DNA of 64,000 nucleotides, from contig JAFCMP010000035.1 of assembly GCA_017506865.1 (NCBI GenBank), positions 744,001 through 808,000 of the forward strand, in the 5' to 3' direction. Below the pieces are notes generated by a model. The model did not search any database. It had not been told where the DNA came from and was given only the letters and a program-made list of their open reading frames with translations. The position numbers and the translations under genes are program-made. Of the stretch, positions 1 through 64,000 are shown piece by piece (the first letter of the stretch is position 1; each line of letters starts with the position of its first letter). Source of the DNA: Tribonema minus. Taxonomy: Eukaryota > Sar > Xanthophyceae > Tribonematales > Tribonemataceae.

Positions 1-71
1 CGTGCTGCGCTGCATGAAGGGCGATTACAGTCACTTGACCTTATCAAGAAGCTTGTAACGCTGACTAGCAA

Positions 72-268
72 CACCAACATGCTGCTCAACTCCAACGACA
101 AGAAAACTGCGGCACGTCAGACCTGCACGCCCATCCCCGTGAGGAAGGAGAGGAGCATGTGACACTTGACTGACTTGACTAGTCAACTTCAACATGCTGC
201 TCAACTTCAACAATGACACAACTGCGGTACAGCCACCTGCACGCCCGCGCCTGCGAGGACGGACGAGT
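72..268 (-). repeat. Two echoes of the 3' edge and donor of TM9SF exon 363-504
   Basis: The exon end encoding LAGTGVQ plus the first intron bases recur at about 222-268 (VLAGAGVQ) and about 72-160 (LTGMGVQ). Each is flanked by a CAACTTCAACAATG-like segment that also borders the real exon at 322-360. Unit spacing is about 120 bp. Both keep a GT after the CAG, so they look like decoy donors. Confidence 0.7.
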
Positions 269-362
269 CAACTTCAACATCATCATCAACTTCAACAATA
301 ATACATCCCACAGTATCACACACAAGTCAACTTCAACAATGCTACAACCGCAGCGCGTCCAC

Positions 363-3300
363 CTGCACGCCCGTGCCCGCGAGCACGGAGAGGACCATGG
401 GGGAGAACGCGGGGGGGCGGAACACGTCGCCGTGCACGAGCTTCCAGCCCGACTCCTCCTGCGCCTCCTCGAGCGTCTGTGCCTCGTTGTACGAGGCAAT
501 GTCCCTGCGCGCGCGCGCATGCGGGCGCGACGGTTATGCGTCAGTTACACGGCAAGCAGTGCTCAGTGATTGCGCGTGAACGGCGCGTGCGCAGCAGCGT
601 GCGTGGCAGCGTGCACGGCATGCCTCTCGCGCCTCTGCCTGTGTAACAGGCAGCGCTCGGTGATATGCGCATCGCGAGCGGCGGCGTGATCGTCACCAGC
701 GCGACATGCGCTGTTGCAGCGGATCTTGAAATTAAGGTGCTGGTATAAACACAAAAACCATCAGGTTCTGCGTCAATACTTTGCTGTGCATCATTGGTAG
801 TCAGCTCTAACCGAAAGCCTCCCTGCAACACACAGTGTGGTACCTCGCAAATACCTTGTCACGAGGCAACAGACACTAATGCAGCAGTCTCGAAGAGCGA
901 GAGAAAAATATACCCAGGGAACCAGCATAGTGTTTGCTGCTGCTCTGAGCGAGTGTATCGATACTCTGTGCTGCTCTGAATGACATAATCAATAATGCTG
1001 CTTGCTCTCGAATGAAGCGTTTGCAAGACACCCATCATTCCCTCACAACGCGCCGTCTGAGAGCTCACTTGTGCAGGGTGCGCAGCATGATCATGGCCAC
1101 CACGCCCGTGAGGAACAGCGTGATCATAAGTGAATTCACGACGCTGAAGTAGTGGATTTCATCCTCCGGGTCGCCGAGCATGTACGCGTCCCAGCGGTGC
1201 GCCCACTCAATGTCGCTCCTCTCCCACCGCACGTCGTAAGTGAAGATCACCTGGCGGCCAAGACGTGCGCACACGAGGTAATTTATCAGTCTGTATGCTT
1301 CAATGAGTGCATGTTTCGGAACTAAAAAAATACGAAGACTGGTGTCGTGAGTGAAGATGACATACGGCCCAGATGAGGCATAACGTTGCACACATCAGCT
1401 TGAAGTGCATCCTTCACATCCGCAAAGAAGTAGACTGCTGTCCTACGTCAAGATGGTCTGTGAGGCACATTTTGCACACACCAAAATGCAGCTCGTCATT
1501 CCCAATGTTAGGCGTGCTCTTTAGAGCCATGAAACCAGACGGGCGTCCGTCGCTAAGTGGCAGTGACAAAACTAGACACCGTCGCAGAGTAGGATACCCA
1601 AGGTGGACCCGATGCAAAGTGCAGAAGAGCACCTGACCAGGGCAGGCCGGATTGCAAAGAACTGATTATTGTGCAGGTGCTTACGCGAGTGGAGAAACAG
1701 TCCTGACACAGGGTCAGAATAGTACTGAACTGGTGCTGGACCAGTCCATGGTGGACTAACAAGAGTGACTCCACTGTTGTGAGAACCTGTGTAGGTATGT
1801 AGGCACATGCAAGTAGGGTATGTAGGTTTCATACTCCGTCAGGCAGCAGGCGCACGAGTCCACCATCAACTTGCCACCAGCTCAGCTATGCTTGACCCCA
1901 ATGTCGCTGACCCTGACTCTGACTCTAGCCTACTTCGCAGCGGAACGCCACCTCAGCATTGATGTTGCGGCTACATACGCAGCGTTGCATTCAAGGCTCA
2001 CCTCCCCTGCCTGGTCGACGAACTGAGGCGCGCCGGCGGTGCGCGTGAGGGGCTCCGTCGGGCTGCACGTCGTCAGCTCTGCCGTCATGTCAAACTCCTT
2101 CTGCGCTATGCTTGACCCCGATGTCACAGACCCTAGCTCTAGCCTACCTCGCAGCTGAACGCCACCTCACCAACGACGTTGCAGCTACGCAGTGCCAACT
2201 TCAAGAGCTCACCTCTCCTGCCTGATCGACGGACTGTGGCGCGCCGCCGGTGCGCGTGAGCGGCTCCGTCGGGTTGCACGTCGTCAGCTCCGCCGTCGTG
2301 TCAAACTCCTTCTGCGGCGCGGCAGCAGCAGCCATGGTCAACACAAAATTGAAATAGTGATTGATCGATTGGGGAAAGCGAGTTGTGTTTCCTCTGTTTG
2401 ACCAACTTCGCATTGGAATTAAAGGCAGCCAGCTCCGCCGTCGTGTCAAACTGCTTCTGTGGCGCGGCAGCAGCGGCCAGGGTCAACACGCAAAAAGTGA
2501 GAGCGTAGAGCTTACCGTCGCGCCAGAGATGGACAACCAAAGGACCCCCAAGCAGACACAAGACTCGTGGCTGGTGCATGTGTCGCGAGAAGTGATCATT
2601 GACAACGAAGGAGGCAAACATGAACTGTCACGTCAGTGCCCCAACATCGCCATGAGCTGAGCCGTGCGCTGTCAACGAGCAAAACGGTGACGAATTGATC
2701 GGGGAAAACAAGTCGTGTTTCCCTGTTTTGACGAACCTCGCATTGGAATTGAAGGCATTCGGAGCTCAGTTGTACTTACTGCTTGGGAGTGGCGGCGCAG
2801 CGGAAACGTACTGCAACATCATGTCTGCACAACAATCACATTCGCTGGAAATCATTCCTCAATGAACGTGCTATGCAGATGTAGAGTCAAAATTAGCTCT
2901 TGTGCGTGCGTCAAGCTACATGCGCAGACGCCGAAACATAGTCCACGCCATACGCAACCACTGACGTCAGTTCATGGAGGGCTGTTGTCCCGTTTACATG
3001 GGCACGAGTATGCATCGCACTCGCCACGTTCTTGACTGCTGTGGCGTTCCGGCGTTCCGGTTCAATTGCTTGACGGTGCGAGCAAACGATAGGGCCACGC
3101 AACCATTAGGTCCACGCGACAAATGTGCCACCAGGCCTAATTGAGAATGCCAGAAAAAACACCTGGGCGGCCATGCGGCATGAACTGCATGATCGGCATG
3201 CACGAGCGCGCCGATCAGCATCGTGGGGCTGGAGTCAAGCACAAAGGTAGCTCTAGGGTAGGGGGCGCGTGTCGCCATTTATTCTGGCTGTCGCAACGTA

Positions 3301-6300
3301 CCCCAACACCAGCACAATGTCATCATGCGAGAAGCTGTGCTGCAATGCCTCATGTCCTGCATGTAGCGAGTGACAGTGCTCAGCGCGGCACCTACGGTGA
3401 AGCATCCATCCACCGCGCGGCGCGGGACGCCGCCGTGCGCCTTGCAGAGTCCCGACTGCTTGTCCACGACAGCCTGTGCATGCCCTCATCGCCAGCGCAA
3501 GGCAGCGACCCGCACCCGCCATACACCGAAGGCCGGCAAAATTTGTTCTATCAAAATTCACTTATGGATCCGAAGCTAAAATTGAACTACAGTAATAAAA
3601 AAGAAAGCATTGCTTCAATACGAGAATATTTATTCCGTGTTGCTAATTTAGCATTCGCACTTACTAAAGCTATTGCATTGTCTGCATTGATGATAGCCCT
3701 CACAAACCTTTTCGCATTCTAAAAATGCTAAGCACTTGCGCTGCGATGGCGGCGCGCACATTACATGCATGCCATCGCAGCGACGATGGCAGCGAGCGCC
3801 TGGCCACCGCCGCGTGGGAAGCACGAATGGGGGGAGGCCACATCATGCATGCTGTGGGAGGCTGAAGCGCGGGTCACACAACAAGGGATGAAAGCGCTGC
3901 CACGCCACCCGCCGCCCCTGCCGCCAAGAATTTAGTGCTCGCTGCTGCGGCAGCCATGCGGTGCAGGGAACGCTCGCTCATGGCAGCACAAGGTGTACCT
4001 GATGTTACGAATGTCCCCTGCTGCGCCTTTTCAGAGGGATGACCCCTTCTTGCCAAAGAGTGTGAATGACTCTGATGAAAGAAAATACTTCTCGAAGTAG
4101 AAGTACAAAGAGGTGGGTGAAGAGTTCCAGAAGGTACGAATGGAGAACGCGATTTTCTCACCTAGAATATTTTTAATGACTCTGACGAAAGAAGATACTT
4201 CAAAGTACAAGTACGTAGAGGTGGGTGAAGAGTTCCATAGGGTGGAATTCCACAAATCGATTCTCTCACCTTGTTGTCAAGCAGCGTGTACGCGTGCTTA
4301 ATGCTCACGGGCGTGATCTCAAAGCACGATGCGCTTGCCAGGGAATGCTTCACTGTCGTGGAGCACCTTGCCTCTGACAAAAGAATATCCCTCTTTTTGT
4401 TGAAGTAGAAGTACTAAGAGGTGGGCGAAGAGTTCCAGAGGGTGACACCAAGAACGCAATTTCCTCACCTTGTCATCGGGCAGAGAGTACGCGTGCTTGA
4501 TGCTCACAGGCGTTTTGGTAGAGAACTTTCCATGACTCTGACGAAAGAAGATGCGGTATTTTTTTTATAGCATTTGGAGGTGGGCGAAGAGTTCCAAGGG
4601 GGGAAACCAAGAACGCAAGTCTCTCACCTTGTCGTCGGGCAGCGTGTACGCATGCTTGATGCTCACTGGCGTGATCTCAAACCCGACTATGCGCTTGCCG
4701 GGGAACGCCTCGCTCTCGTGGAACAGCACCTTGATGCTGGAGTGGTTGTTCAAGTAGTGCGCCCTGGACAAATCGTGAGGCAGTGCATGAGGCCGTGGGT
4801 CAGTTGCTGACATGTGCAACAAACAGGAAGTGTTGATGATTGCGGCGCTTGGCAGGGACTCCATTCTCAAGGGCTGCAGATTTGTGCAGGTCTTGCGCCA
4901 GGTTTGCGTTTGCGAGGCAGCACGTGCGCATTCATGAGGCGCTTGGTGATGCATTCAAGAAGCAGGAAGTGCTGATGCTTCCGGCGGTTGGCATGAATGG
5001 CGCTCTCGAGGGCTGGATATTGAACCCTTAAGTTTGGGGCGCAAATCATTGCCGTCTGAGGTCTCACAGCCTTCTGCAAGTACAGACAGTCTCGACCTCA
5101 ACGGTTACCGCAGTCGCATGGTTGAAGTGACCAAGAAGAAATATGTAGACTGCAAAAAAACGACAGATGCAATCGACCATGTTCTTTCATGTGCGCGCAT
5201 TTAAGAAAAGCAGTGTCCCTGAACAATAAGAAATGGCATGCAGAATTTCGTCTGCTTCATGTTACAGTTGCACTCACTTTTTCCCATCACTTTCTCTCAA
5301 GACCCCCACGGGATGGCCACGGACGACAAAGTCACGCTCGCTGCGCACAAACCCAAGAGCAAAGAGACAAGAGGAGGGCGTGAAGATCTTGGGCTAAAGC
5401 CAACAGCAGAGAGACTGTGGCAAGAAAGAATTTGTTTCAACAACAGAGCAATCACAGCACATGCACGTTTCCATTCAGCACGTGAACACCGGCACTACAG
5501 TACCAGCGCAAGGGTCTGCGCCTGTAGACAACAAGAGAATGAAATGCTCTTTATCAAAATCAGCCGGCGGCAGTGCTCTGCAAGTGGAAAAGGTTGCAGC
5601 GCGTGTTGCTATCATAATTGCTGGCACACGCAAGCCAACCTTGCTGCCAGCGAAACGCAAACCAGCCACTGGGTCGCTCACACGCCCGCAGTGCAGCAAG
5701 CAATGCGCCATCAATTCCGCTGGCAAGCGCAAGGCACACCGCGGCGCCACCCTAACCAAAAATTGTGGGTCGCTCAAACCCCCTGCGGTGGCAGCAGCGC
5801 AAAAATTAAACATGTTGCAAGTCACTCAAACCCCCTGCGAGTCACTCACGTGCCCCCCAGCGCCGCCGGCAGCCCATCGAGCATCATGTGCACGCGGTAC
5901 TCGCCGTCGATGAGCGCGGCAAACTTCTTGGCCTCCGCCTCCGTGAGGTCGCGCCGGCACGCGACCACACAGTTGCGCTCGACGCCCGCGCGCACCTGGT
6001 ACGGCGCCGTCTGCGCAATGGCAAAGACGCGGCAACGCTCAGCCAAAACAGCCAAAGACAAGAACATTGTTCCACAAAGACGTAGCGATGCTGAGCCAAG
6101 ACAGCCAAAGGCCAGGAACGTTGTACGGCGCCGTCTGCGGACGACAGCGCGAATGGCGTGGCGGTGCTCAGCCAGTCGCAGCAGTGACATCGCGCAGACC
6201 GCCGTGCAGAGGGCCCGCGGCTTGAGCCATGACAGCAATAAGTCGCGCACGCATGCTTGTGTGTAGGAGAGGAAGAGCTGACACAACAGCAGTACGGCGC

Positions 6301-9300
6301 CGTCTGCGGACGGCAAAGATGCGGAGATGCTCAGGCAAGACAGCCAAAGACAAGGACATTGTACGACGGAGACGCGACGAACAGATGAATACGCGGCAAT
6401 GCTCAGCCAAGACGACCAAAGACGAAACCATTGCACGGCGCCGGCTGCGGACGGCACCAGACGCGGCGTGGCGGCGCTCAGGCAGAACGATGACCTGGAG
6501 ATGCTTGGTCAAAGGCGCTTTGGCAGAGAGTCGAACTCGGTTGAGTCGAGGTCGGTCCGTCAACGCGGGGAGAGCAACGACACGGACGAGGCTGCTTCAG
6601 AGACTTGAGGAGCATTTCCTCTGTGTCTATGATGACCGCGATACCAAGAAGACAGCGGCCAAAGGACGTAAAAGGCTGTTGCGAACCAAAACCCGCTCCG
6701 AGCAGGTGCCTCGTGTGGAGTGCGTTCAAGGGCGCATACTTACGGGATCTCACTCTTTGCAGCTAGACGATGGGGTACCACAGGTATGCAACTTTGAAGT
6801 AGCTGAATGGGCAAGTCACCTGTACGCTGTCGCCAATCAGCACCTCGCCCAGGTTTTCGCTCTGGTGCCTGCGGCAGCAGGGCACGCAGTACGACAGCAA
6901 CAGCAGTGAAAGACGTGCTCAAACATTAGCCTTCTTGCATCATGTCCATCACAAAGAGCGATACATGCTACGCCACGGCACTTCACAATCTGTCGTCACG
7001 GTAACAATACACTGCGCCATTATACAGCTTTTCGTGACGACAGCCTGCCGATGAAGTACATCACTGAGGCAAAGGCGCTGAGCTGCCATCGTAGCTCACT
7101 TGAGATGTTCCGGCTTGCAGAACGGCGCGTGGTAGAAGTCGTAGGGCAGCTGCGTCTTCGTGGAGTCCAGCGTGACCACCTTCAGGGGCACCTGCAGCAG
7201 ATGAATAGGCAGGGCAACATGTGCGGGGACATGTGATGTTGTGCACCCAGCCTCCAACTTCAACATTGCACTTGAATACTGTTACTATGGCAGTCATGCA
7301 GGACCACGTCACAGCGGGCGGCGATGCCAGTGCTCAGCCATCACCAGCAGCAGCAGGCGCTGCCGCCGCCGATGCGCCTGAATGTGCACAGCTGCGGAGC
7401 GACGCGAAGTGCTCTGCTTGTCGTGGAGCTGCAGCCCATGGGGCGGCATTATCAAAAGAGGGTCACAGTAGTACGCGATTCATGGCCTGGTGACATGAGA
7501 CGAGACCCGCTGCAGTGCATGCTGCTACTGCACCGCAGGGGCGTGCTGCAACTGCCGAGCGCTGCTGCTGCAGCTGAGCGGCGCTGCTGGCGCTGAGAGC
7601 CGCACCATCGACACACGAATGCACAGCGCGCAATGTCCAGCAGCGCAGCAAAGAGCGCTGCTGTTGCTGCTGCTGCTGCTTTTGAGCACTGCTGCAGGTG
7701 CTTACTGCCGCAACCTTGCTACGCCGCTGCGTTGAAACATTCGCAACGCGGCGGCGGCACCTGGACCTGCATCCGGGCGAGGTGTGCTTGCACAGACGCG
7801 ATTTCACCATCACGATATGGGGAATGTCACGGCAGCGCTCAGCGGCGTGTGCAGCGCCGAGTCTCGTTTCCTCGTTCTTGCCGGCGAGTCATGAAACTGC
7901 ACCTGAGCATCGGCCATCCCTGCACCGGCTGCCCAGTTTTGCGTTGCATCGCTCTATGACAGAGGCACACCTCAGGGCATGCCGAGGCTGGGACATTGTG
8001 ATGGGTCACCTCGGGTGGCTTTGCTCTTAGGCTTTTGTTCTGAAGGCTGCACTTAGAAGTAGGACTGGGGCTAGCCCTGATGACCTTCCAGCTCACAAGA
8101 TCTAGATGAAGAGCCTTGTGGCAGATCGCTCGCATGACCATGCACTTATGACAAGACAGCGCGCAATACGCCGTCGAAACATGGAATGCACCAAAGCAAG
8201 AAGCCAGATATACCCCTATCCCAATGACATCAAGCTGGCGAGACCGGCGCCGGCGCCCTGAATGGATCGTACAGTTGGTCCTGCTCAACTTGTGCTTTTC
8301 AATAAAGCACAGCAGTCAGCGCTCCAGTGAGAGCTGCACGGCACGCTGATGTCACACATGCATTCGACACAGCCGTTCGGCAATGACTCTGTTTTGACCG
8401 TCGCCAGGCGGCGTAGACCGCTGCGTCACCGCTCGACCGAATGCGCCGTGAGCGCTGCTGACATGCTCAGCTGAATTGCCAGTACACCCCCGAGGCCCCC
8501 CCCTGGCTGTTGCCGTCGACGATGCGCGCTGCTGAGCTGAGCACTGCTGACCCGTGCGCTGTCACACGAAACCGTTCTCAGGCCATCCTGCCATCGCCGC
8601 AAAACTACGCGCTGCGCAGACGCGGCTCATCCACTGCCCAGCCAGATACGCCGTTGAGCGGTGCTGGCACGCTGGGCGCCGCAGCATGCGCGTCTGTGAC
8701 ACATGCCCGGTGCTACCAAGGGGTGTGCACCACTCCACCGAGGCTCAGCCAGGTGTGCTCCGCGGAGCGCGGAGCATCACGGCAAAACTGAGTGATGCTC
8801 AAGTCCGCACTACTGCACTGCCACGAAGAGCATGCTGCTTAGCCAGCCCTCAGGCGAGTGCGCAGCCTCGGAATAAATGCCACCAGCACATAAACAGCCA
8901 CGTGTGTGCCACTCTGTTGCGTACGACATCATACTTCCGACGCCCTCATATTTTAAGTGCAAGGAAGGTGCAGCACACTTCGGAGTGCAAAGTACTCTCG
9001 CAGTGAGGCCTCGCAATACGCTGCAGTTGTTCCGCCGAATGAATACAGCACGCACAGAAGCTGTGATGAATCCTGCAGGCTGACAGGCCAAGTGCCAAAT
9101 ATGTTGGCCGATGACGGCAGTAGTGAAGCGGACCTCATTGGGGCCGCATACTTTGAAGCATAAATGCCGTACACGGTGTTTGCTGACACTTCTTTTCTTT
9201 GTCAAACAGCGCTGATGTGGTGCTTCGCTACATGACAAGCCAATGTCGCCAACGATGTGTGCATGGCGCAAAAGTCCCTGAAGACAACTATAAGCAGTTG

Positions 9301-11135: not shown

Positions 11136-19408
<8,273 letters not shown>

Positions 19409-20770: not shown

Positions 20771-21293
20771 CGTACTTATGATCTTGTATTTATAGCAGCC
20801 CCAAGGTGGGCTTGATGCGTTGGATAAGAATGCAAAAAACTAAAATCGGACGGGCCCTTAGAGCCCTGCGTTGCAGGCTTGTACTAGACTCATGGGGGGC
20901 AGACACAGCGGCACCCAGTCTGAGCCACACCTATCGTAGCCGATGTCTCCATCTCTTGAGCGAAAACGCCGGAGGACCGCGGTTATGCCTCTAGTATACA
21001 TCTGGGCCAGAGGCGCCCGGTCCTCGATTCCTTGCCTAAGCACGCCGCTGACGTGCCTGGCCGAGGTTCTCTTTCTTGCGTGTTCAAGCAAACGATCTAC
21101 AGTGTGCCCTGATGCTATCCGTATCCCCATGTTCCAATATCCCCTGCTGCTGCCCAAAGCCGTATCCTCACCACACGCGACTCCGCAGCTCCTGCTCACA
21201 GCCAGCATCTCCCATCCCCTTGCTGCCTGATGCACCCTCGCCACCATCAGCGCCACCGCGAGTGCTGCCGCACCTCTCGGTGCTAACGAGCAG
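20771..21293 (-). repeat. Left arm of a near-perfect 523-bp inverted repeat
   Basis: This arm is the reverse complement of 21412-21934 with equal length and only about three differences noticed (near 20953, 20969 and 21261), so the duplication is young or maintained. It starts at CGTACTTATGATCTTG and ends at GCTAACGAGCAG. The spacer is 118 bp. Confidence 0.92.
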
Positions 21294-44715: not shown

Positions 44716-47700
44716 TTAGAGCAGCCTGCGTGCGGGGGGCGGGACTTCGGCCGGAGGCGCGCCGTCTGCGGAGAAGCAAGAAGCAGAGCGCGCATGCTGT
44801 CGGTTAGCGTCGGGGGAGACTGTGGGGGCGATGCGTGCACGGAGGCATCTCTGCACACGCCAAAGGGGGCTGTCATAGTACGGTCGCGCTGCTGCTGATG
44901 GTCTTGCTGACAACCTCATTGCTGCCGATGGTGACGACCGAGACTTGTGTGGTGCTGACGTGCATGCGCGTATCAACAGGTACAGTTTGCGCAATGTGGC
45001 CTTCAGAAAGCCGGCAGCAGTGCCGGGACCTGACGCCGATTTGCTGTTGTCATCCGGAGCATCGGCAGCATCACCTTTAGCAGCTGAGACCTCGCTGCAA
45101 TGCAACGTTCAAGTTCAAGTGGCGACTCACCGGCGGGCGGCGGCGGCGGCACCACGTCCGCGCCGTCTATCACCCCATCACCATTGTTGTCGGCTTCGGG
45201 AACCCCGTCACCGTTCACATCGACAGGTGCCGGCGCAACGGGGGCCGCAGGATCCACGACTGGGGCAGCCGGATCCACCACTGGGGCAGCGGGGTCCACG
45301 ACTGGGGCAGCCGGGTCCACGACTGGGGCAGCGGGGTCGACAGGGGGCGGGGGCGGCACGACATCGGCGCCATCTATTACCCCGTCACCGTTGTTATCCT
45401 GCTCTGGGATGCCGTCACCATTGACATCGATGCCGCCTTCCACGCCGCCGACCGCTGCGGGGGTGATAGCGGGGGCAGGCGACGGAAGAGGGGGGGGGTG
45501 AGGGGCGTGCGCGGCGGGCGGAGGGGGTCTGGTCCCCTGAAATATGTCTGAATGCAGAGGTGATGGCTGGATGCACATGAGGAAACAGGGGGGGTTGAGG
45601 GTGTGGGGGGGGGGGTAGCGTTCCCCTGTGCCTCACTCCAGCAACTCCTTTTGAAGTGTGTGGCCCCCCTCATCTCTCGGCAGAGATGTCCCCCAGGTTC
45701 TGTAAACATCACAAGATCCCTTTGCTTAGCTCTTACACAGGTGTTCAGTTGACCACATGTGCACGGCAACGGTGCGTGCACTGCAGGGTAGGCATGTACT
45801 TGCAGTGCTGCAATATGGAGTCTTGTCCGAATTTAAGGACACTGTCCGACTAATGCGGAATGGCAGTAAAGAGGGGTGACCGCCAATTTGAGATGGCCAG
45901 TTAAAAGGGTGACCTGTATTTGTGGAATAGGCCCAATACGCATTGCCAGGCATCAGATAGCACGAGAGCTATCTAAGGACACTGTCCGACTAATGCGGAA
46001 TGGCAGTAAAGAGGGGTGACCGCCAATTTGAGATGGCCAGTTAAAAGGGTGACCTGTATTTGTGGAATAGGCTCAACACGCATTGCCAGGCATCAGATAG
46101 CACGGGAGCTTCTTCAACTTCAAACAATTTGCCGAGAAAAGGTGCCCGCGGAGAAGCGAAAGGTGTTCAAGGCCAAGGCGGACGCCAAAAGCAGCTGTCT
46201 TAGGTGACAAGCAACGCAAGATCAGCTTCTTCTGCACCTGTCTAGCTGCTGCAGGAGACTTGTAGCGCAGTTTGAGTCGAGAAGTAGTTTGATCATGTGC
46301 GTGCGTGCCGGTGGTGGCGGGGGCGATCGTCGTAATTGATGCTGGCGAGGGCCTTCGCTTCGTCATCAACGAGCAGCAACAGCAACAATAATTGAGAGCC
46401 TGCCGCGATCCTGCCGCTCGCAACGATTATGCCAACACTGGCCCACAGTCGCCAGCAGGAGGTGTAACTCGGCCATACAGAAGGCATATGTCCTGCAAGT
46501 GCTTGCTGTTTGCGCAAGAAACCTTGTGCATTCACACAGTCTTGTGCGGTGAAGTGTATGTTACCGTCTTGGTGAAAGCTGAGGCGATATGCGGCAAAGT
46601 GTATGTACCTCAAACCCCCCTGACCAACAATTTGGGATGGCCAGCTAAAGAGGTGACCTATAATTTGGGTGGCTCAGTTGAAACTGACGCATTGGTCGGA
46701 CAGTGTCCTTAAATTCAGACAAGACGGTATGTTAGTGTAGCATTGGCAGCTGTCTATAGGTTGCACAGTTGGCGCTTACGCAAGAGATCGGCGTGCGCTT
46801 CACTTTAAGTGCCCAGGTCAAGGGCCACTGATGCCATGGGGTTGGCAGACTTGATCAAATGGCACCTTCACTCGCTGGCGCCGCGCGCACTTCTCAGTTG
46901 ATGACGCCAATGCTGTTCACGCGCATGCATTGCTAGAGTCTGATCTTTCGTTTGACAATATGATGTTGAAGGACTGCACCATCGCATGCTGCACGAGTTG
47001 CTCCTGTAAACAAGCAGTGTCTCGGATCCACAGGTATGGACTCTTAGGTGACAGCAATTGGCGCTGCCGCATTCAGGCGGATGCACGCAGCCGTGTCCGG
47101 TATGGTGATGTACGTTTTCACACTTGACGGTAATAGCGTCAGAATTTGCGCAACGCTCATCTCATGGTACATAATGTGCCGGCTATGTCACTGTGTGATG
47201 TGTGGTAACGACACCACACATCGACAGTGCCGACGCAAGCAGTGGGGCAATCGCTGGCGTATCCGCATCATCTGCGCCACGGTACAGCATCAGTATCGCG
47301 CAGTGCTGATGGTAACGGCAGAGCGCTCACAGACACTTTCTCATGGCAATGCCGCTGCTTACTAAAACGACAACACGCAGTTCTACAATGCGCGCAATCT
47401 CAATGCGCGCTTTCCGCCGATCCAGCATGTGCTCTGTGGCACCATCCGAAAGCGCCGCCGGCACAACTCCCAGCAGCGGAGGAGGCACTCACCGGGGGGG
47501 ACGTCCTCCAGGTCGATGACCCCATCGCCGTTGACGTCCTCGTCCAATACGCCGTCGCCATCAACATCCACAGGCTTGGGAGGCACAGGCTTCACAGGCT
47601 TCACGGGCTTGCCGGGCTTTTTCGGCGGGACGACAGCGGCTTCCTGAGTGGGAGCCACAGTGGGCGCCGTGGAAGGGGCTACGCTGGGTGCGGTGCTGGG

Positions 47701-51083: not shown

Positions 51084-54000
51084 ATGGCGATGGCGGCGCT
51101 GACAGCAGCAGCAGTGCGCGCAGCGCTGTTGGCAGTAGCGGCGGCGGCGGCGGCGCGGAGCGTGTAAGTGGTGCAGCTCAGCATCGATGCCAATCTCAAC
51201 TTGAAGTCCCTGAGAGTACACGTGGCGCTGCTCATAGCGAAGGCGGCAGTCAGCATCGCTGGCGCGGAAGGAAGACTGCCGATGCTGATGTCAGCGGCAA
51301 CGGCAGCTGCGCCGCAGAGGCAGAGGCCTGGCAGACGGCGCTGGCGCTGCTGCGCGGCGGTCGGATAGCTGATGCGGCAGCAGTGCTCCGCACAAGCGGC
51401 AGCAGCAGCAGCAGCAGCAGCGGCAGCGCCGTTCAGGTCGCGACCACTGATCCCACACCAGTGCTCAACAGCAGCTTCAACGCCGGCGAAACCCCAGCGG
51501 CAGCCCAGACGGTCACCGCCAGCAGCACCGGCAGCAGAGCCAGCAGTTGTAGCGGCCACAGAGCTCGCAGCAGCAGCGGCGGCGCGGGCCGCAGCAGTGG
51601 CAGCGGCGGCGGCAGCAGCGGCGCGGCGCACGCCGCGGAGCTGTGCTTCGCGTGCCTGGACGCGCTCACCGCCACCAGCCGCGCGCGTCTGAAACTTCAA
51701 CTTCAAGTTGAACTCGAGGAGCGTCACCGCGAGGCTGCCGCAGCAGCAGCGGCAGCAGCGGCAGCGCCCGCAACAGCTGCAGTCAGCCTCATGGAGACGT
51801 GGGCGGTGGACGCGGAGCTGGAGCGCGGCGACGCTGCCGCGGCGGCGGCGGCGGCGGTAGCGGTGCGCGCGTACCGGCGGCTGGCGGAGGGCGGAGCGCT
51901 GCCGCGGTTCGGCGCGGCGGCGCGCGCGCTGCCGCAGGGGCGGCCGCGCGCGCCGTCACGGGCTGAGGTGGGTCAGTAAACGCGCATGCGGCGCGCAGCT
52001 GCGGTCTTGAATCATGGCGCTGCTGTTGTCATTCGTGAATTTGTCTGGCGACGCGGTGGTGCGATTTACGTCCTTCGATGCAATGCGGGTCGCGCCAGGC
52101 GCGCGCCGGGATTCGATGTCGGGGCGCGGCGACTGCTGGCGGCTCGCCGCGCACGTGGAGCGCTGCTGCAGTCTCGAGGCGATTGCTAGCGACTGCGCAG
52201 GTGCTCGTGCGCGTCTGGCGGACGAGATTGGCAGCGTCTGTGAAGCGCGCTCGCCGCATGCGGCGGATGCGGAGCACACCGTGGAGCGCTGCCGCGACTG
52301 GTGCGCCCCAAGGCTACTGTCAAGCTCCGAAACGCGCTCTGCCAATTTGCATGTGTCAGCTCGGTCTCGGGAGAGGGTCATGGAGTCAAGCTGGCACGCA
52401 ATCGGTAGTGTACTCGCGGAATGGCACGCTGTCGCGGTTGAATGTAACCGCTGATTCTGCGGGCTATGTGGCGACGCCGTACTTTCGCGTTAGGCTTCTG
52501 TAGCTCCTCGACGAAGCCGCAGCGGCCAGTCGGTCGATGTGTTGTGAAGTACTTGTGATGTTGTGAAGTACTGTACTGCCTCAGTCGACTGAACCAGCTT
52601 CAACTTGCTGACAGTCGACACCTGCCTTACTCAGAGCATGCTCCGCACCCATTCCGCAGACGCTGCCAGACGCGCCACTCGAGCCGTGCTCAGCACGCTG
52701 CGCATACATGCGTACCTACAGTATCGGGCTGATCGCCGTTGTCGTGCTGTGCCTCTCTTTCCTGGCGTGCCGCTGCTCCATGCAGCTGGAGCGCCTGGTG
52801 GGGTCCTCTGAGCGATACGCATACATGCACCCGTACATACGTACAGCCTCGAGGTGACGACCAGTGCCCCGCTGTGCGTCTGTTTTCCTGCCGTGCCCCC
52901 GCTCTCTGTTCAGTTGGAGCGCTTGGTGGGGGTGCCCACGCGCCGGCTGGCGCCGCCGCGGTGGCCGCAGATCCTGTGGGGGGCGCTGATTGGCGCGGCC
53001 GCAGCGGCGTTCGTGTGGGCAGGTACGTCAATCATTGTACATACTTCAAGAAGTATGTATACTTCAACTTTTGTCATTTTTGCAGTACATTTACATGTAT
53101 TTTCAGGTATATACCTGTTCAAAGTATATGCTTCATGAAGGACATGTGTTGAGCCATGCTCTCGCTTTGTTTGCATCGCTCCCTGCGGGGTTCAAGTAGG
53201 GCTACGCAGGGTTTGGTTACCTCCAGAGACTCCCCATCCTGCGGGCCATCGAGCTCGCTGGCAAAGTGTGCGCGCCACCATGCACCTTAAATACCTCTCC
53301 TGATCAGCATGTTTCAAAAAGCGCGTCATGCTGACCTAACCCTAAACCTCAGCACCTTCAGATCTCGTGCAGATTTGACGGTTGTGGGTACGAGTACGCA
53401 CGCCACCAGGGATTGCGTGGCGTAGCTCGCAAACTTCTCAGAGCAGAGACGCGCTCGATCCCTTGTCGATTAGCCGCCCGTGCATGCTCTGCCATGTTGT
53501 TCTGGCCCCCACGATGCTGCTGCCGGCGGCTGGGGCGCTTCTTGCAGTACCCCGCAGAGTCCATGACGGACGGCTGCGCCCTCAGGCGAACTTGCGCTGA
53601 GAGGTACAGAGTAGGGTTAGGGTTAGAATTAGGGTCAGGGTCAGGGTCAGGGTAAGTGTTAGGCAGCAGCAGCTGCCGCAGTTGCCGACAACACGCCTGA
53701 TAGCGGCGCGCACTCAAAGTCTCCTCGTGCCCGGCGCCCCGCCCTGCCTGCACGCACCAGCGTTGCAGAATTCACCCGCGTGTACTCCGCTGTACACTGT
53801 ACTCCCGCTGTACTCCCGCCGCAGGCACGGCCGCCGCCAACGAGAGCATGCTGGCGGCGCGCGCGGTGGCGTTCCCCGACCCCGAGCCCGCGCACACCAT
53901 GCGCGAGGCACTCGGGCTGGGGGTAGGCAGGTATCACGGCGGCGGCGGCGGCGGCGGCTATGCGGCGGGTATACATACCCCTAGCAGGACGGTCCTGTGG

Positions 54001-57000
54001 GGGTCGTGGTGGGCGATGGTGGCGCTGGTGCTGGACAGGTCGACAAAATTTTTAAAGTGTGACTCTACTGCACTACAAGTTCAGCTCTGTGGGCTGTGTA
54101 TTCGAAGTGTGATCTGTGAGACTCTAGTGCAATTTCTTCTACGCGGGCGCTGGGAGTCTTTGAATCTGGGTAGTTGAGGTTTGCAACACTTCAAGTCAAG
54201 CATCAGGCTTTTTCAACCAACACACGCACACTTGCCTGCTGCAGTCACAACTACACGCGGGTTGCCACCTACGCCTCGCAATGATGCAAACGCTCATGTA
54301 TGAAATGCTGTGCGCAGGGAGCTCCTGGAAGGCGGCTTGTTCAGGGGCGGAGCGCTGCTGCTGGTGCCGGGTCTAGCGCAGCGCGCTGCCATACACGAGG
54401 TGAAGTTGACACTATTGACATTGAAGTTTGCAACGCGGACAACGGACCGATGATAGACATATGCAATTTTTTTGCTGCGATCGTGAGGCATGACGGCACA
54501 TAATGATGGCACGATCTCTCTCAGTGAATGGCACCAAAGTGCTGCTGCTCACGACAGGTCTAGCACGGCGCTGCCAGTACAAGATGTGAAGTTGAAGTTG
54601 AAGTGTGCTACGGCGTCAGACAATGAAGACGTTCGCACAACTGCTCGATCTCGGGCTGCATGTCTAAGCACGGTCATACAAGTGATGCTGCTGGCCTGCC
54701 GCACCGCCGCCCGTGAGGCTAAGTTGACATTGAAGTTCAGTCATCACGATGGGAGACGCTCCTGCAGATCAAGTGGGTACGCATTCACACTTGCGCTTTA
54801 CAGCAAAGGCAGGGGGGGGGGGGGGGGGCTCCCCTGAGCTCTGGAGGCTGCTGAGCTCTGTCGCACGACCGCTGAGAGCCCCTCTCTGTGGCCTTGCAGC
54901 ACGTGGAACCAGGAGGTGCTGCACCAACGGAGCGTCCGCGATCGTGTGTCGCTTCCGGCCCGCTGAAGTTTTGCGACTGAGTCTTTATCAGCCAACATGG
55001 TGCCTTGCACTTTTACCCCACTTGTACAGCACGCGAACCACGGCAGTTGCTGCCGAATCTGCTTCTGCGTTGTCGCGCGGTCATCTCAGCGTGCGCTGGT
55101 CACTGCCACCCCACTGCATGTCCGCTTTGCGGCCGGCCGCCCCACGCTGCCCCATCATTCTTGCAGAATCGCCCTCTTGTGCGATGCTCTCCGCTCGGCA
55201 CGCCGTGACTCGCGCTTCAGCACGGACAGATGTGTGCACTCGCCTCTTGTGCGATGCTCTCCATTCGGCACGCCATGACGTGCGCTTCAGCGCATGGACA
55301 GACGTGTGCATCCTCATTTTGTGTTTATGTATGGGCTCTTGTGTTGCAACGCTCCCATGAAGCTTCATCTGCCTCGCGTGCGCCTCTGCCTTGCGACGCA
55401 GGCTGGTCACTTCTACGTTGCCCACCTCCTGGGGTGCGCCGTCACGGACTTCAGCGTGGGGGGTTGGACTGCACTTCAACAGGTGACTTGAAACCTGTCA
55501 AATTCAATGTTAAAGTTTTGTAGTGCTCGCGCAAAAGTGCCACAGTTCGTGGTAGCCTTATCTTCTGCAGTAGGTCACAATGAGGGCCCGGGCCAGTGAG
55601 GTTCAGTGACTCGGGCAAGGCGCCAACTTCACCTCAACTTCAACTTCACCCCACGCTGCGCGCTTGCGTGAGCCCCTGCGCGCGCTTGCTGACACCCTGT
55701 TCTTCACGCTGCAAGGTGTACTAGCTTAGACCTTTCTCAATGGTGAGGGCATCCACTTCACCGCAGCGAGGCTGCGTCACCTGCAAATGCGGACATCATT
55801 GTATGATGGATGAACTCATGACAGTGTCAAGGCGGGTCTGCATCAGAAGAAGGCACCTCGCGCTGACTGAGCACGGCTACAACACCCCCCCTGCTGCACT
55901 CTACGACCTCTCGCGCACGCCCCCCCAGGGGCGGAGCGCCGCGGGCGGGTTCACGGCGGTACACGATGTACAGCTGAGCACTGCTGCTGCTGCTGCTGCT
56001 GCTGCGGACAACATGCCACCGAGCGCTGCCGCGGCGACCACCGGAGCCCCCCTAACACCCTGGCCCGCCGGTACCGGTACCCCCAACTCCCCCCCTGGCA
56101 CCGTTAATGGCAGCCCGGGAGTGCAGCGGAGGGGAGAGCTGGGGGGCAGCGCTGGCGAGGGGGACAGTGGTGGCGGTCTGGGGTCAACTTCAAGTCCTGA
56201 TGCTGGGGCTTGGCGGTCGAGCGCTGCCGCGGGGGACAAAGAGGGGGACTGGGGGGGACCCACGGGGGATGACTATGGCGCGCTAAAGCGGGCGTCCGTG
56301 ATACTGATGGGCGGCGTCGCGGCGGAGGTGATCCGCTCAAACCCTCATTCAAGCCCTAGTTCAGTCCCTCACCCTAAACTTCAATTTTTACCCCTGAGAG
56401 CCATTGGAGACCGTGGCCTCCGTTGGGAGCTGCAGGCACTTGCAAGGCTGGTCATGTGCGATGGCGTAGGCGGATGTGAAGAGTACCGAGGGGCGAAGTC
56501 GCGGCAAAGAAAAAAAGTGTGGGGTTAAGCATTCAATATTGAAGTTTGACTTCAGCTTCTTCGTCTTGTCAGGACGACACTCCCCAAACCAGCGCTGCCG
56601 GCACGCGTTACCCCCTTGTTCTAACCTACATGCTTACTATCAGTACACTTACCCCTGCCCTCACTGCCGTCAGAGGACCCGATGGCGCTGTCCAGCTCAC
56701 CTGCGAAAGAAAACCGTAACCCGCCACGCATAACAGCGCCGCGCGTAACCGCTGCAGGCGTCACCGCAGCCCCGCAGGCCGTTGTTGTGGGCAGCGCGCT
56801 GGGCAGCCTCTGCCACAAAACCGCAACCGCAGATGCGTAACTGCCCCGCGTTCAACTGCCCCCCTGCATGATTGCCGCCCGCAGGCCGTCGTCCGGGGCA
56901 GCGCGCAGGGCGGCCTGCCTGCTCGCAAAACCGTAACCATCGATGTGTAACTGCCCTGTGCGGAACTGCCGCAGGCCGTCGTCCTGGGCAGTGCGCTGGG

Positions 57001-58585
57001 CGGCCTGCACGACACGGAGCAGCTGGCACGGCTGCTGCGCCAGCTGCTGCCGCGCGTCACGCCGGACGAGGCGCAGGTGAGGGTTCCCTAAACCTGACCA
57101 TAACCTGATCCTGACCTTACTGTAACCCAACCCTGGCTACCAGCAGCAGCGCTCAGCTCGGTGATGACAGCTGCGTGCGCTCGAATCACTAGTCAGTGTA
57201 AACTAGTATTTGTATGGCCAACGGCAGGGTTGTCCATTTGGAAGGACGCCTGAATCTTGACTGCATGCGGTCGAATCGTTTGACCACTGCGAACTATTTC
57301 AAGGCCTACAGTAACGGTCCGATTTGTTTGCAACACTTAAAAGGCGGCCTAAGATTTGCACCCCAAGGGCGGGGTTAGGATTTGCTCGTTGCCATGAACA
57401 AGTTGGATGCGAGCGATCGTTGACACCATCGCCCAGCTATCATTCGGTTTTCCTCGCTCGCAACACCCCTGAAAGCGCATGCGAGCGCGCAATGGCGCCC
57501 TCACTGCGCAGCTCCTCATGTTCAGGCGGCAGTCCAGCGATTCGCAACTAACCCTAACCCTAAGGTCAGGGCTGGCATGGCGTGTCCATGTCTACAGCTC
57601 CAACCTACATGGAGGCTGGACGCATATCCACTGCCTGAGATTGCTGCTGTTGATTGAAGGTGTGTTGCTTCCACGCCGTCAAGCAGCACGACCGTTGAGG
57701 GTCTTCCGCACACTGGAAGTATCAACTTAAAAGTTACCATTCGGTTTCGTCTGATCAGCGCACCTTCTTCACAAGCTTTTCAAGAGCCTTTGTTGCAGTC
57801 TGCAGAACGTGACATGTACTAGATTCCCAGATCCCTAGATTTGTGATGTTCTTGCTCGGTGTTCGGCTGAGTCGAGAGTGATTGACATCAAAGATACCAA
57901 CAACCTTGACAAAGTACTTCATGGCAAAGAGTAGCCCTGCATCGACCAACTGCACAAGTGAAGTGTTGTGCCTCAGGTGAAATGGGGAGGATGAGACTAC
58001 AGCAATAGCAACATCACATTGCCAATTTGACAGCTGTAAGGCTGCCCTGCTGTCGCAGATCAGCACGACCCAAGTCACCCAATGGCAGTGGCAGCAGCTC
58101 ACGACGCGCCTAACTGTCAGTTAGTAGGTGACTGAGGCCTGCATGCTGGCCGCCTGCCGGTGAACGGGTAGTCTGGCATCAGCTGCATGGTGTACCCAGT
58201 TGCACGCAGCAAATAAATTTAGTGGGCAGTAGTGCACTCTCAGTAGTCTGCCGTTAACCTAGCATCTGTGCATTCCCTTTGTATGGGTGCATGCACAGCT
58301 GTACTTATAGTTGAAGTTTCAATGTGTCCTGTGCGCGCCTGTTTGCGACCGCAGGCCTGGGAGAGGTGGGCGCTGGCCGTCGCTTGCCAGTTGATTCAAG
58401 AGGGGGTCAGCGCCCCTACAAGCGGCCCAGCCTCATACCCGCTGCAGGGGCAAATGCCCCCCCATGATAAAGTAGCCGTTCGAGTGCAGGGTCAAGCAAC
58501 AAAGGGTCCGTTCGTCAGGTTGTTGGATGCCATGCGCACTGGCAGCGGTATCGGTCAGTGCTTGAAGGCCGTGGAAGGCACATAG
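51084..58585 (+). CDS. HEAGH membrane metallopeptidase-like protein (plant-type, M41-related)
   Basis: Exons: 51084-51163, 51250-51967, 52914-53022, 53210-53265, 53825-54038, 54318-54399, 55402-55482, 55929-56327, 56975-57076, 58355-58585; about 690 residues. Phases match except 53210-53265 (ends phase 0) to 53825-54038 (enters phase 1); a candidate exon at 53548-53603 does not repair this. The N-terminus MAMAALTAAAVRAALLAVAA looks like a transit or signal peptide. Then AYRRLAEGGALPRFG, membrane segments (ILWGALIGAAAAAFVWAG; VLWGSWWAMVALVL) and the zinc motif IHEAGHFYVAHLLG, split by an intron as HE|AGH. ALKRASVILMGGVAAEAVVL, SALGGLHDTEQLARLL and the C-terminal FVRLLDAMRTGSGIGQCL fit the plant family of FtsH-peptidase-like proteins that lack an AAA domain, often chloroplast-located. 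An Ala/Gly/Pro-rich insert of about 100 residues in exon 55929-56327 is unusual. Confidence 0.83.
51380..51860 (+). repeat. Ser/Gly/Ala-coding trinucleotide-rich segment
   Basis: CAG, GGC and GCN-rich stretches in exon 51250-51967 encode SGSSSSSSSG, a GGGSSG region and a run of 12 Ala. The minus strand also stays open for 319 codons here, an artefact of the same composition. Confidence 0.7.
52014..52454 (+). other. 146-codon open frame inside an intron of the M41-like gene
   Basis: It lies wholly within the inferred intron 51968-52913, yet has exon-like GC3 and a plausible sequence (WRLAAHVERCCSLEAIASDC, ADEIGSVCEARSPHAADAEH). Splicing it out gives a perfect phase join from AE to LERLVGV. 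It may be a retained or alternative exon, a diverged echo, or chance. No family recognised. Confidence 0.35.
52741..52913 (+). repeat. Echo of the acceptor and start of exon 52914-53022
   Basis: At about 52745-52805, GTGCCTCTCTTTCCTG...CCATGCAG|CTGGAGCGCCTGGTGGGG copies the real CCTGCCGTGCCCCCG...TTCAG|TTGGAGCGCTTGGTGGGG 130 bp downstream. The echo keeps a usable acceptor and the frame LERLVG. Confidence 0.85.
54528..54735 (+). repeat. Two echoes of the 3' edge and donor of exon 54318-54399
   Basis: The exon end GCGCTGCTGCTGGTGCCGGG ... ATACACGAG|GTGAAGTTGA is copied at 54538-54600 (GTGCTGCTGCTCACGACAGG ... GATGTGAAGTTGAAG) and 54685-54735 (GATGCTGCTGGCCTGCCGCA ... GTGAGGCTAAGTTGACATTG). AAGTTGAAG motifs lie at every unit end. 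The exon holds the HE of HEAGH, so use of an echo donor would destroy the active site. Confidence 0.75.
55164..55309 (+). repeat. Tandem doublet of about 70 bp in the intron before exon 55402-55482
   Basis: CTCTTGTGCGATGCTCTCC, then CGGCACGCC, CGCTTCAGC and GACAGAYGTGTGCA are repeated once with few changes. Confidence 0.8.
56778..56974 (+). repeat. Two echoes of the acceptor and start of exon 56975-57076
   Basis: CCGCAG|GCCGTCGTCCTGGGCAGTGCGCTGGGCGGC of the real exon recurs at 56778 (GCCGTTGTTGTGGGCAGCGC) and 56885 (GCCGTCGTCCGGGGCAGCGC), about 90-107 bp apart. Both have intact CGCAG acceptors and diverge after about 33 nt. Each is followed by GCAAAACCGTAACC-like sequence. Confidence 0.9.
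57755..58102 (-). CDS. Hypothetical open frame on the opposite strand of an M41-like gene intron
   Basis: 115 codons in a less GC-rich part of intron 57077-58354. It reads WVVLICDSRAALQLSNWQCD, DAGLLFAMKYFVKVVGIFDV and ends KALEKLVKKVR. The composition looks protein-like, but I recognise no family and see no flanking splice sites. Possibly a mobile-element relic. Confidence 0.3.
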   Translation of the reverse strand: MSCCHCHWVTWVVLICDSRAALQLSNWQCDVAIAVVSSSPFHLRHNTSLVQLVDAGLLFAMKYFVKVVGIFDVNHSRLSRTPSKNITNLGIWESSTCHVLQTATKALEKLVKKVR

Positions 58586-62083: not shown

Positions 62084-63471
62084 CTACTGCTGCAGGGTCA
62101 TGTCAAGACCTGTGTGCGCGGCGCCCGGGTCAGCCGCCCCCGGCGCAGGCGGTGCCGGCGCCGCCGCCACCAGCGACGGCGGCGGCAGCAGCGGCGGTAC
62201 CCCCGTGAACTCTGCAGGCGGCGCGGCGGCGGGCGCGGCGGGGGCGGCGGCAGCGGCAGCGGCGCCGTGCTGCTGCTCGCCGACGCTGTGCGCTGGCTGC
62301 TCCAACGGCTGCTGCTGCTGCTGCAGCTGCAGCTGCGGCGGCTGCTGCGGCACGCCCAGCTGCAGCGGCGGCGGCGCCTGCTGCTGGTGGTCGTGGGGCG
62401 GCCACGGCAGCTGCTGCAGCGGCGGCTCTGGCGCCGCCGCCGCCGCCGCCGCTGCCGCCGCCGCTGCTGCTGCGTCAAGAGGAGCGGTGGGACCGGCGGC
62501 GCCGTCTGGCGGCATGCCCGGCTGGAAGCGCAGGCGCTTGCGCGCGGGGCCCTGGCCGGCAGCGGCGGCGGCGGCGGCAGCGGCGGCGGCGGCAGCGGCG
62601 GCGCGCTTGGCTTGCGCGTCGGCATCTGAATCAACGGCGAGGAATGCACGTGGTGATGAAAGCGTCAGCGCGGCCGGCATGTGTGCGGGCGATTCAATTG
62701 CTGCCTGCAGACAAAGAGGCATCCGATTCGCGCGTGCAAGTTTTTTGTGTTATCGACTGGTCGGTCTTGACGTGCTGGTGACAGTGAGTGGCGGATTTCA
62801 TTCGACCGTCGTTGCAGAACATGAGACCAAAGCTGCCCGCTTGACGTTACGCACAGCGCGGCGCTTACGGGACTTGTGGCACCGCAGCAAGTGCAGTGCT
62901 GCGCGGCGCGCTTTGATCGACGTGCGCCGCAGCAGCAGTGACGGCGACGCGCGGCCGCGGCGCCCACTAGGCGCGCTCGCGCAGCTGAGGCGGCGCGTCA
63001 CGCTCCCCAATGCACATCTTCCTCCTCCTCAAAATGCAGCTGCTCAACATCGGCTGCATCAGGGCTGGTCGCCCTGAGCATCTGAGCCTGCGCACATGCT
63101 TTCCCAACGGCAGCAAACACCACGCGACACTCCCGCCGCAGCGCGCAGCACGGACGAGCAGACAGAAAGGGCGCGCGGAGGGAGCGCAGGCGCGCGCGAT
63201 CGCTCACCTTCGGCGCCGGCGGCGGCGGCCGCGTCGGCAGCAGCCGCTGCGGCGGCGGCAACTGCGCCGTCGTGCAGCGCGGCGTCGAAGAAGCGCTCGT
63301 GCGGCAGCGCCTTGGGCGCGCCGCCGCCGTCGCCGCCGTTGCGCTGGTCCAGCGCGCTGCCGATGTGCGCGGCGGGCAGCGTCGGCGCGGCGGGGCTGCC
63401 GATCAGGCTGCCGAACATCTTGGTGCCCGGCGCGCCGGGGGCGAAGCTGCGCGCGGTGGGGGGTGTCGGGG
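62084..63471 (-). CDS. Ala/Gln/Pro-rich protein, probable nuclear regulator; 3' two exons
   Basis: Exon 63208-63471 enters and leaves in phase 1, with good CAG and GTGAGC sites, and reads GTKMFGSLIGSPAAPTLPAA, LPHERFFDAALHDGAV and an Ala run. Exon 62084-62625 joins in phase (G|AT = Asp). It contains DADAQAKR, long Ala runs, the basic patch ARKRLRF, and the Gln/Pro-rich HDHQQQAPPPLQLGVPQQ and LQLQQQQQPLEQP, ending TLQQ and TAG at 62084. Low-complexity Gln/Ala/Pro plus a basic patch suggests a transcription or RNA-binding cofactor, but no folded domain is visible here. A donor at about 62102 could replace the stop. Upstream exons lie to the right, possibly outside the window. Confidence 0.5.
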
Positions 63472-63639
63472 CTGACGTTGGATTTTGGGGCACACTCGGC
63501 AGAGGGCGCGACGGTGGCGGCGAGCGAGGTCGTGAAGGAAGTGCAGGCTGGGAGCGCAAGCGTGTATTGTGTGGAAGGCGCGCTGTAGGCGCTGAGTGCC
63601 GATGTGGACAGTTATCAAGCTGGGGGGAGGGGGGGTGGT

Positions 63640-63960
63640 ACGCACTTGGAGTCGTAGTGTGGCGGCGCTGTCGTCCGTGCATGCACACATGCACACAGCA
63701 GCTACTGAATATATGTGCGTTTGTGTGTGTATATATACATGCGTTACGCGCTTGGAGTCGTAGATGGCAGCGCTGTCGTCCGTGCATACATACATGCACA
63801 CAGCAGCTCATACATATATATATACTTCAAAGTATACATGTGCGTGTGCACGTATGCGTACATGTAGTATGCCGTATACGTTACGCACTTAAAGTCGTAG
63901 ATGGCAGCGTTGTCGTCCATGCATACATGCATGCACACAGCAGCTTATATAGAAGTAGAA
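63640..63960 (-). repeat. Three tandem units of about 65 bp in 110-130-bp spacing
   Basis: Units near 63641, 63743 and 63881 share TACGCRCTTRRAGTCGTAG, GGCRGCGYTGTCGTCCRTGC and CACACAGCAGCT. On the minus strand each encodes a GACGACARCGCYGCC... block (DDSAAIYDSK in the second unit) followed by GTGCGTA or CGCGTAA, so this looks like an exon-edge echo array of the upstream part of the same gene. TA-rich (GT)n spacers separate the units. Confidence 0.6.
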
Positions 63961-64000
63961 GCATATACTTCGAAGCATGTGTTTTGTGTGTATATATGCA

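What the first reader, a model, noticed from the sequence alone, without database searches (positions are those of the whole stretch)
1..64000. Introns carry tandem 'echoes' of the adjacent exon edge, splice site included
In TM9SF, spermidine synthase, PH-MORN-RING and the M41-like gene, the intron next to an exon holds two to four degraded copies of that exon's edge together with its acceptor or donor, at 80-200-bp spacing. I count at least twelve arrays in 64 kb, on both acceptor and donor sides. Copies lose exon sequence with distance but often keep AG or GT. This is not ordinary intron noise. It suggests a process that repeatedly makes short tandem duplications at exon-intron borders, seeds new introns or alternative exons, and leaves decoy splice sites. 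It fits the general idea of intron gain by tandem duplication of AGGT-bearing segments, but such density is unfamiliar to me.
Basis: partly seen in the sequence, partly recalled or inferred. Interest (0 to 1): 0.88.

Follow-up and report, generated by a model that had tools for sequence, protein, structure and literature searches.

The report
Splice-site duplication echoes in Tribonema introns
In this yellow-green alga, many introns hold worn copies of the neighbouring exon's edge, splice site included, left by a process that keeps making short local DNA duplications; the copies examined look like passive debris that splicing skips, but they pile up at exon borders more than expected.

Summary
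In 329 kb there are 278 direct pairs 40-1000 bp apart, against 19 inverted pairs with separate arms and 34 palindromic hits. An 80-nt probe centred on an exon edge finds a copy in the adjacent 800 nt in 60 of 283 cases, in a mismatched intron 0 of 283; at +200..280 it is 20 of 298. At 52 edges fixed by proteins: 18 of 52, against 2 of 774.

67 of 125 arrays span no filtered exon edge. Edges exceed deep intron about 3-fold (bootstrap 2.2-5.0); longer persistence should give only 1.3-1.4. Copies lie on their own edge's side (22 of 24), not in the AGGT intron-birth arrangement. They decay like neutral DNA (35 of 38 indels shift the frame), and one transcript-derived protein omits them. Best explanation: recurrent short duplication, perhaps by break fill-in repair, tolerated where splicing removes the extra copy.

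The parts
4628..4763 (-). TM9SF exon ending in ...TLPDDK with donor GTGAGA
   Evidence: protein P0121, named for T. minus
4065..4733 (-). donor-side array: three degraded copies of the exon end, donor and intron start (about 4513-4469, 4366-4270, 4161)
   Evidence: no other match in the genome by DNA search, which skips common words
5850..6010 (-). TM9SF exon with acceptor GCGCAG|ACGGCG
5999..6485 (-). acceptor-side array: repeated intron end, CAG and first exon nucleotides
2213..2311 (-). TM9SF exon used in protein P0121 (KEFDTTAEL...)
1885..2757 (-). array around that exon: whole-exon copy at about 1999-2103 (donor side) and partial exon-start copy at 2430-2489 (acceptor side)
62..399 (-). 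donor-side array at the TM9SF exon 363-504
16764..16944 (+). array spanning a predicted acceptor (16914)
16996..17226 (+). array spanning a predicted donor (17023)
27669..27821 (+). array spanning a predicted donor (27684)
31882..32293 (+). array of about 3.5 copies, period about 103, running into a predicted exon start at 32270 (not in the filtered edge list)
33000..33315 (+). array spanning a predicted donor (33055)
52713..52931 (+). array spanning a predicted acceptor (52914)
56771..57008 (+). array spanning a predicted acceptor (56975)
45831..46110 (.). young two-copy tandem duplication (140 bp, 97%, no spacer) that spans no filtered exon edge

Best explanation
The genome (very probably Tribonema minus) suffers frequent short local duplications (offset mostly 60-500 bp, and shorter young ones) that copy DNA, mostly in the same orientation, next to or near itself. 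Shown: they occur in most of the sampled segments, direct pairs far outnumber inverted ones, part of them are head-to-tail, the exon-edge copies decay like neutral DNA, and one transcript-derived protein holds each exon once. Inferred: they arise by fill-in of staggered breaks followed by end joining. A duplication inside an exon is purged; one that spans a splice border is tolerated, because splicing from the exon-proximal donor to the exon-proximal acceptor discards the extra copy, so the intron lengthens and gains a decoy splice site. A further excess at borders (about 1.6 to 2.4 fold after correction for persistence) is shown statistically but not explained.
For: Wide occurrence: 20 coordinate-chosen 10-kb segments plus six of the window gave 153 direct pairs at offset 60-1000, 6 inverted with separate arms, 16 direct further apart, 0 in shuffles; 24 of 26 segments have at least one local pair. 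125 arrays span 14.5% of 329 kb (the sample includes gene loci chosen by Pfam). Edges. Same arrangement at Pfam-chosen TM9SF paralogues on C3, C35, C445 and partly C44. Neutral decay: codon-position mismatch 0.108, 0.104, 0.209, and 35 frameshift versus 3 in-frame indels in 39 border-crossing echoes. Little microhomology: 12 of 28 young pairs end within -2 to +1 nt of an exact period. A head-to-tail unit is at least 80% recovered in 30 of 60 edge echoes. Protein P0001 (assembled transcript; source organism not shown) holds each C3 exon once, while 8 further matches to its exon edges lie outside the exons; P0121 likewise, but it is the genome's own annotation. Small duplications, mostly without microhomology, from fill-in plus end joining are shown in mouse and human cells (PMC8355091, passages read).
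Against: Only 26 of 278 pairs are directly adjacent; the median spacer is 112 bp. Several 93-100% identical copies have spacers of 41-288 bp outside the match, and 15 of 60 edge echoes recover under half a unit; part of the process may be templated insertion. Inverted copies exist too: my first counts left out palindromic hits, of which there are 34, 8 of them longer than 150 nt; a fill-in model does not make these. 7 of 28 young pairs have 4 or more nt of excess identity, 9 of 28 are incomplete, and 23 of 28 have periods of 18-47 bp, shorter than the echo periods. The enzymes were not examined. Places differ strongly: the TM9SF paralogue on C41 has no array, and edge echoes are overdispersed among segments (chi-square 72.8, df 32).
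Confidence: 0.68

Rival explanations
1. Exon-intron borders are themselves mutational hot spots (chromatin, R-loops or the composition step at GC-rich exons), so duplication is targeted to them. This adds to the best explanation rather than excluding it.
For: Edge 60 of 283 against 20 of 298 at +200..280 in the same genes; ratio 3.1 (2.2-5.0). Intron sequence beside the border is also raised: 44 of 287 at +25..105. 58 of 125 arrays span an edge, null 36.1 sd 4.7. Persistence gives only 1.3-1.4.
Against: 67 of 125 arrays span no filtered edge. The simulations are crude; stronger constraint near borders, faster turnover deep in introns or gene-finder errors could account for more. At protein-fixed edges the decline is shallower (18 of 51 at the edge, 10 of 49 at +300..380). 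In the first, coarser random-placement test the excess stayed within the null range (25 vs mean 20.0, max 30; 24 vs 18.8, max 29).
Confidence: 0.4
2. Intron birth by tandem duplication of AGGT-bearing exon segments (Rogers model).
For: Duplications often include exon sequence and AG or GT.
Against: Echo positions are the opposite of the prediction (22 of 24 on their own side); same-intron border similarity disappears on inspection.
Confidence: 0.04
3. Echoes are functional: alternative exons or back-up splice sites kept by selection.
For: GT and AG kept at 72 of 78 nucleotides (92%) against 89% at exon codon positions 1 and 2 (1015 of 1135); one whole-exon copy in TM9SF has an open frame and both splice sites.
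Against: That difference is small, and alignments that must cross the border favour matches there. 35 of 38 indels shift the frame; the mismatch pattern fits a free copy and a constrained exon. P0001 omits the copies.
Confidence: 0.1
4. Introner-like or other mobile elements supply the repeated intron sequence.
For: A piece of about 91 nt inside the array 5999-6485 has 22 further copies in the genome.
Against: Arrays 1885-2316 and 4065-4733 matched nothing but themselves or their own array (the search skips common words, so this is not proof of rarity); copies contain the exon of their own gene.
Confidence: 0.05
5. Assembly artefact.
For: None found.
Against: 189 of 278 pairs are below 85% identity; arrays differ between paralogues on four contigs; C3 exons map cleanly to a transcript-derived protein. 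Raw reads were not available.
Confidence: 0.01

Closest known systems
Potato RdRp gene: tandem duplication across an intron-exon boundary (Ma, Lan and Niu 2016, PMC4974935; abstract and passages read)
   Different: There a single event produced a new intron and extra exon sequence; here many events, and copies end up inside a longer intron.
Small tandem duplications by Pol alpha-primase fill-in and end joining (PMC8355091; start of abstract and passages read)
   Same: Direct, short, in normal cells mostly without microhomology.
   Different: Shown in mouse and human cells at nuclease-made breaks; no preference for exon borders in the passages I read; enzymes untested in this alga.
[quoted passage not shown]
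   Same: Tandem duplication near AG and GT.
   Different: Geometry of the copies is opposite to the model.
Human introns said to derive from tandem arrays (Zhuo et al. 2007; recalled; only its title words were matched in other papers' text)
   Same: Arrays in or beside introns.
   Different: Not read; not compared here.

Membership tests
AGGT tandem-duplication intron gain | donor border and acceptor border of one intron are homologous | tested here: not met
   10 of 128 at first; 9 are overlaps of the two probe windows, 1 a coding repeat
AGGT tandem-duplication intron gain | echo of exon 1 lies beside the acceptor, echo of exon 2 beside the donor | tested here: not met
   own side in 9 of 10 and 13 of 14
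Microhomology-independent small tandem duplication | direct orientation, short distance | tested here: met
   278 direct local pairs against 19 inverted pairs with separate arms and 34 palindromic hits; so mostly, not only, direct
Microhomology-independent small tandem duplication | copies directly adjacent, head to tail | tested here: inconclusive
   30 of 60 edge echoes recover at least 80% of a unit; only 26 of 278 pairs adjacent
Microhomology-independent small tandem duplication | little or no microhomology at the junction of young copies | tested here: inconclusive
   12 of 28 within -2 to +1 nt; 7 of 28 with 4 or more; 9 of 28 incomplete
Microhomology-independent small tandem duplication | dependence on CST, Pol alpha-primase, Ku | not testable with these tools
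   needs mutants
Introner elements | near-identical unit dispersed among many genes | tested here: not met
   3 arrays searched: 2 without a dispersed match, 1 sharing only a piece of about 91 nt
Tandem mutually exclusive exons | copies keep the reading frame and appear in mRNA | tested here: not met
   35 of 38 indels shift the frame; absent from P0001 and P0121; minor isoforms not testable

The most novel reading that the evidence does not exclude
In this lineage exon-intron borders are true duplication hot spots: a border-centred process copies exon edge plus splice site into the intron again and again, so introns lengthen from their ends and are largely built from eroded echoes of their own borders.
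Probability: 0.35. Interest if true: 0.82.

Novelty: new variant of a known kind. Interest (0 to 1): 0.6.

Why it matters
How introns lengthen is usually answered with transposons. Here the spans of recognisable local duplication arrays cover about one seventh of the sampled sequence, and about one splice edge in five carries a visible echo. That makes intron growth, decoy splice-site load and the first step of duplication-based intron gain measurable in one genome, by comparing strains, RNA and relatives.

Tried and rejected
Rejected: AGGT intron birth; introner families; echoes as functional exons; assembly artefact. A first random-placement test at pair level on 202 acceptor and 187 donor edges, echo-like exons not yet removed, gave only a weak excess inside the null range (25 vs 20.0, 24 vs 18.8); I report it beside the later, cleaner tests. 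A link with coding density or GC was not seen. A breakpoint motif was sought: AACTTCAA-type words are enriched, but only 26 adjacent junctions could be examined and the density there is erratic. (exon extents) was flawed, because the target could include the exon itself; one search replaces it. My inverted counts leave out palindromic hits; one search counts them (34). A match beyond the last C3 exon at first looked like an echo without a splice site, but the sequence suggests another donor (AAG|GTACGT), so I do not use it that way. No other eukaryotic genome was available, so whether this density is unusual among algae was not tested. Searches for a description in print: listings only, apart from PMC8355091 (start of abstract and passages) and PMC4974935 (abstract and passages); none of the listed papers appears to report this in Tribonema, but the listings were capped and subscription journals are mostly missing.

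Rows dropped: 208 of 418 predicted exons by score or length; 16 of the remaining 210 that resemble a better exon nearby; low-complexity probes and probes too near a segment end (389 to 305 edges, 358 to 283); the segment C35:742860, which mostly repeats the window, left out whole and the edge tests (it is used).
Full report
What it is in. The window is G000:C35:744001-808000 of a 158-Mb genome. A protein named 'putative endomembrane protein 70 [Tribonema minus]' lies on a contig of 1,537,782 bp, the length of C35; another T. minus protein lies on a contig of 415,978 bp, the length of C44. So the organism is very probably Tribonema minus, a yellow-green alga.

The observation. Self-BLAST of the window gives 38 direct pairs with offset under 1000 bp, against 3 direct pairs further apart and 3 inverted ones. 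The same holds elsewhere: 26 segments of 10 kb (20 chosen by coordinate alone, 6 from the window) gave 153 direct pairs at offset 60-1000, 16 further apart, 6 inverted; shuffled segments gave none; 24 of 26 segments hold at least one local direct pair. These inverted counts leave out palindromic hits, in which both arms form one interval. Over the whole 329-kb sample there are 278 direct local pairs and 19 inverted pairs with separate arms plus 34 palindromic hits, 8 of them longer than 150 nt. So direct copies prevail, but inverted ones exist.

Genes chosen without regard to echoes. The Pfam family of TM9SF was searched in the genome. Duplication pairs straddle or abut the edges of many Pfam-matched exons on C3, C35 and C445 and some on C44; the C41 gene has none. 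Two CCT chaperonin genes show few.

Edge test. I wrote a small gene finder trained on Pfam-supported exons (it covers 12,634 of 13,941 Pfam-matched nucleotides, which were also its starting material). For 283 usable edges, an 80-nt probe centred on the edge finds a copy (score 36 or more) in the adjacent 800 nt in 60; in a mismatched intron in 0. Pfam-anchored edges: 19 of 71 (control 1). Just inside the intron (+25..105): 44 of 287; +200..280: 20 of 298; +300..380: 20 of 293; random non-exon positions: 21 of 500 (control 2). Random segments alone: 29 of 161 at edges, 12 of 172 at +200..280; window alone: 12 of 45 and 1 of 45. With exon junctions fixed by three proteins (P0001, transcript-derived, source organism not shown; P0002 and P0121, named for T. 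minus and so from its annotation), 18 of 52 edges have an echo, against 2 of 774 mismatched probes; there the decline into the intron is shallower (8 of 50 at +200..280, 10 of 49 at +300..380).

Is the edge excess more than preservation? 125 arrays span 14.5% of 329 kb; 58 of 125 span a filtered exon edge, against 36.1 (sd 4.7) by random placement in the same segments, 0 of 500 reaching it (odds about 2.1). Simulated neutral duplications with a constrained exon copy are found 1.33 times more often at edges, 1.30-1.43 with deletions. The edge-to-deep-intron ratio is 3.1 (2.2-5.0). Dividing one by the other leaves about 1.6 to 2.4 fold unexplained. A coarser earlier test gave an excess within the null range. 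Echoes cluster by segment (chi-square 72.8, df 32).

How the copies behave. In 39 border-crossing echoes, mismatch to the exon at codon positions 1, 2, 3 is 61/566, 59/569 and 120/573; the third position is twice the others, as expected if the copy mutates freely and the exon only at silent sites. Of 38 indels in exon-derived parts, 35 shift the frame. GT remains at 36 of 38 nucleotides and AG at 36 of 40 (recounted); against 89% at codon positions 1 and 2, and given the bias of alignments that must cross the border, this is no proof of selection. The nearest copy is the more similar in 8 of 12 arrays. P0001 and P0121 contain each exon once, while further matches to the same exon edges lie outside the exons.

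Arrangement. Echoes of an upstream exon's end (10 of 108 introns tested) lie nearer the donor in 9 of 10; echoes of a downstream exon's start (14 of 105) lie nearer the acceptor in 13 of 14. This is local duplication across a border, not intron birth from AGGT.

Mechanism. Young copies in the same sequence include two-copy tandems of 133 bp (100%), 140 bp (97%) and 173 bp (97%). Of 28 young pairs, 12 end within -2 to +1 nt of an exact period, 7 have 4 or more nt in excess, 9 are incomplete. That favours fill-in of staggered breaks and end joining (PMC8355091, passages) over slippage between repeats, but it is inference. Against a purely tandem process: 26 of 278 pairs are adjacent, some copies of 93-100% identity have spacers outside the match, and among 60 edge echoes 30 recover at least 80% of a head-to-tail unit and 15 under half. 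Templated insertion may contribute, and the palindromes need yet another route.

Comparison. The nearest printed case I found is a potato gene in which a tandem duplication across an intron-exon boundary made a new intron (PMC4974935, abstract and passages). What appears new here is density, the both-sided pattern and the border excess. The searches named in 'tried and rejected' listed no description for Tribonema; most subscription journals are not in that library.

Verdict. Observation confirmed and extended; interpretation partly supported. New variant of a known kind.

Noticed in passing
window 20771-21934, 37206-38203, 27966-28449, 22226-22643: Four long imperfect palindromes (1181 nt at 93%, 1036 at 75%, 491 at 70%, 443 at 70% aligned). 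The first carries nearly the same reading frame back to back on both strands (20858-21358 minus, 21392-21847 plus).
   Followed up: partly
window 30051-30230 (+): Match to bacterial-type LSU rRNA (Rfam RF02541, 70 bits) inside the nuclear contig: probably an organelle-derived fragment.
   Followed up: no
window 14406, 39290, 42004-42054, 53612-53663 and elsewhere: Short interstitial runs of the TTAGGG/CCCTAA telomere-like unit; TAACCCTAACC occurs 29 times in 12 of 21 sequences.
   Followed up: partly
non-coding sequence of window and loci: Words AACTTCAA, ACTTCAAG and their complements are strongly enriched (96 vs 11 expected for AACTTCAA); such words are about twice as dense inside duplication arrays as in other non-coding sequence (2.34 vs 1.01 per kb). 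Cause unknown.
   Followed up: partly
window about 6185-6275: A piece of about 91 nt with 22 further copies at 72-84% identity; on C71, C212, C246 and C4 some lie in same-strand pairs 4.4-4.5 kb apart, like ends of a retroelement.
   Followed up: no
G000:C41:239718-248222: TM9SF paralogue whose long introns hold no detected echo, unlike its relatives.
   Followed up: partly
window 45003-45632 (-) and 47383-47793 (-): Reading frames with DVNGDG/DVDGDG motifs, the first also with a PAAPVVD tandem repeat; calcium-binding type repeat by recall only.
   Followed up: no
L043:4458-4947: Cluster of nested, near-identical short duplications built on GTACTTTTTATTAATTCTCGCTCAGGGCGCGAA, also seen at window 20681-20720 and 21338-21377: a dispersed short repeat, and a case where local pairs are not plain tandem copies.
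   Followed up: no
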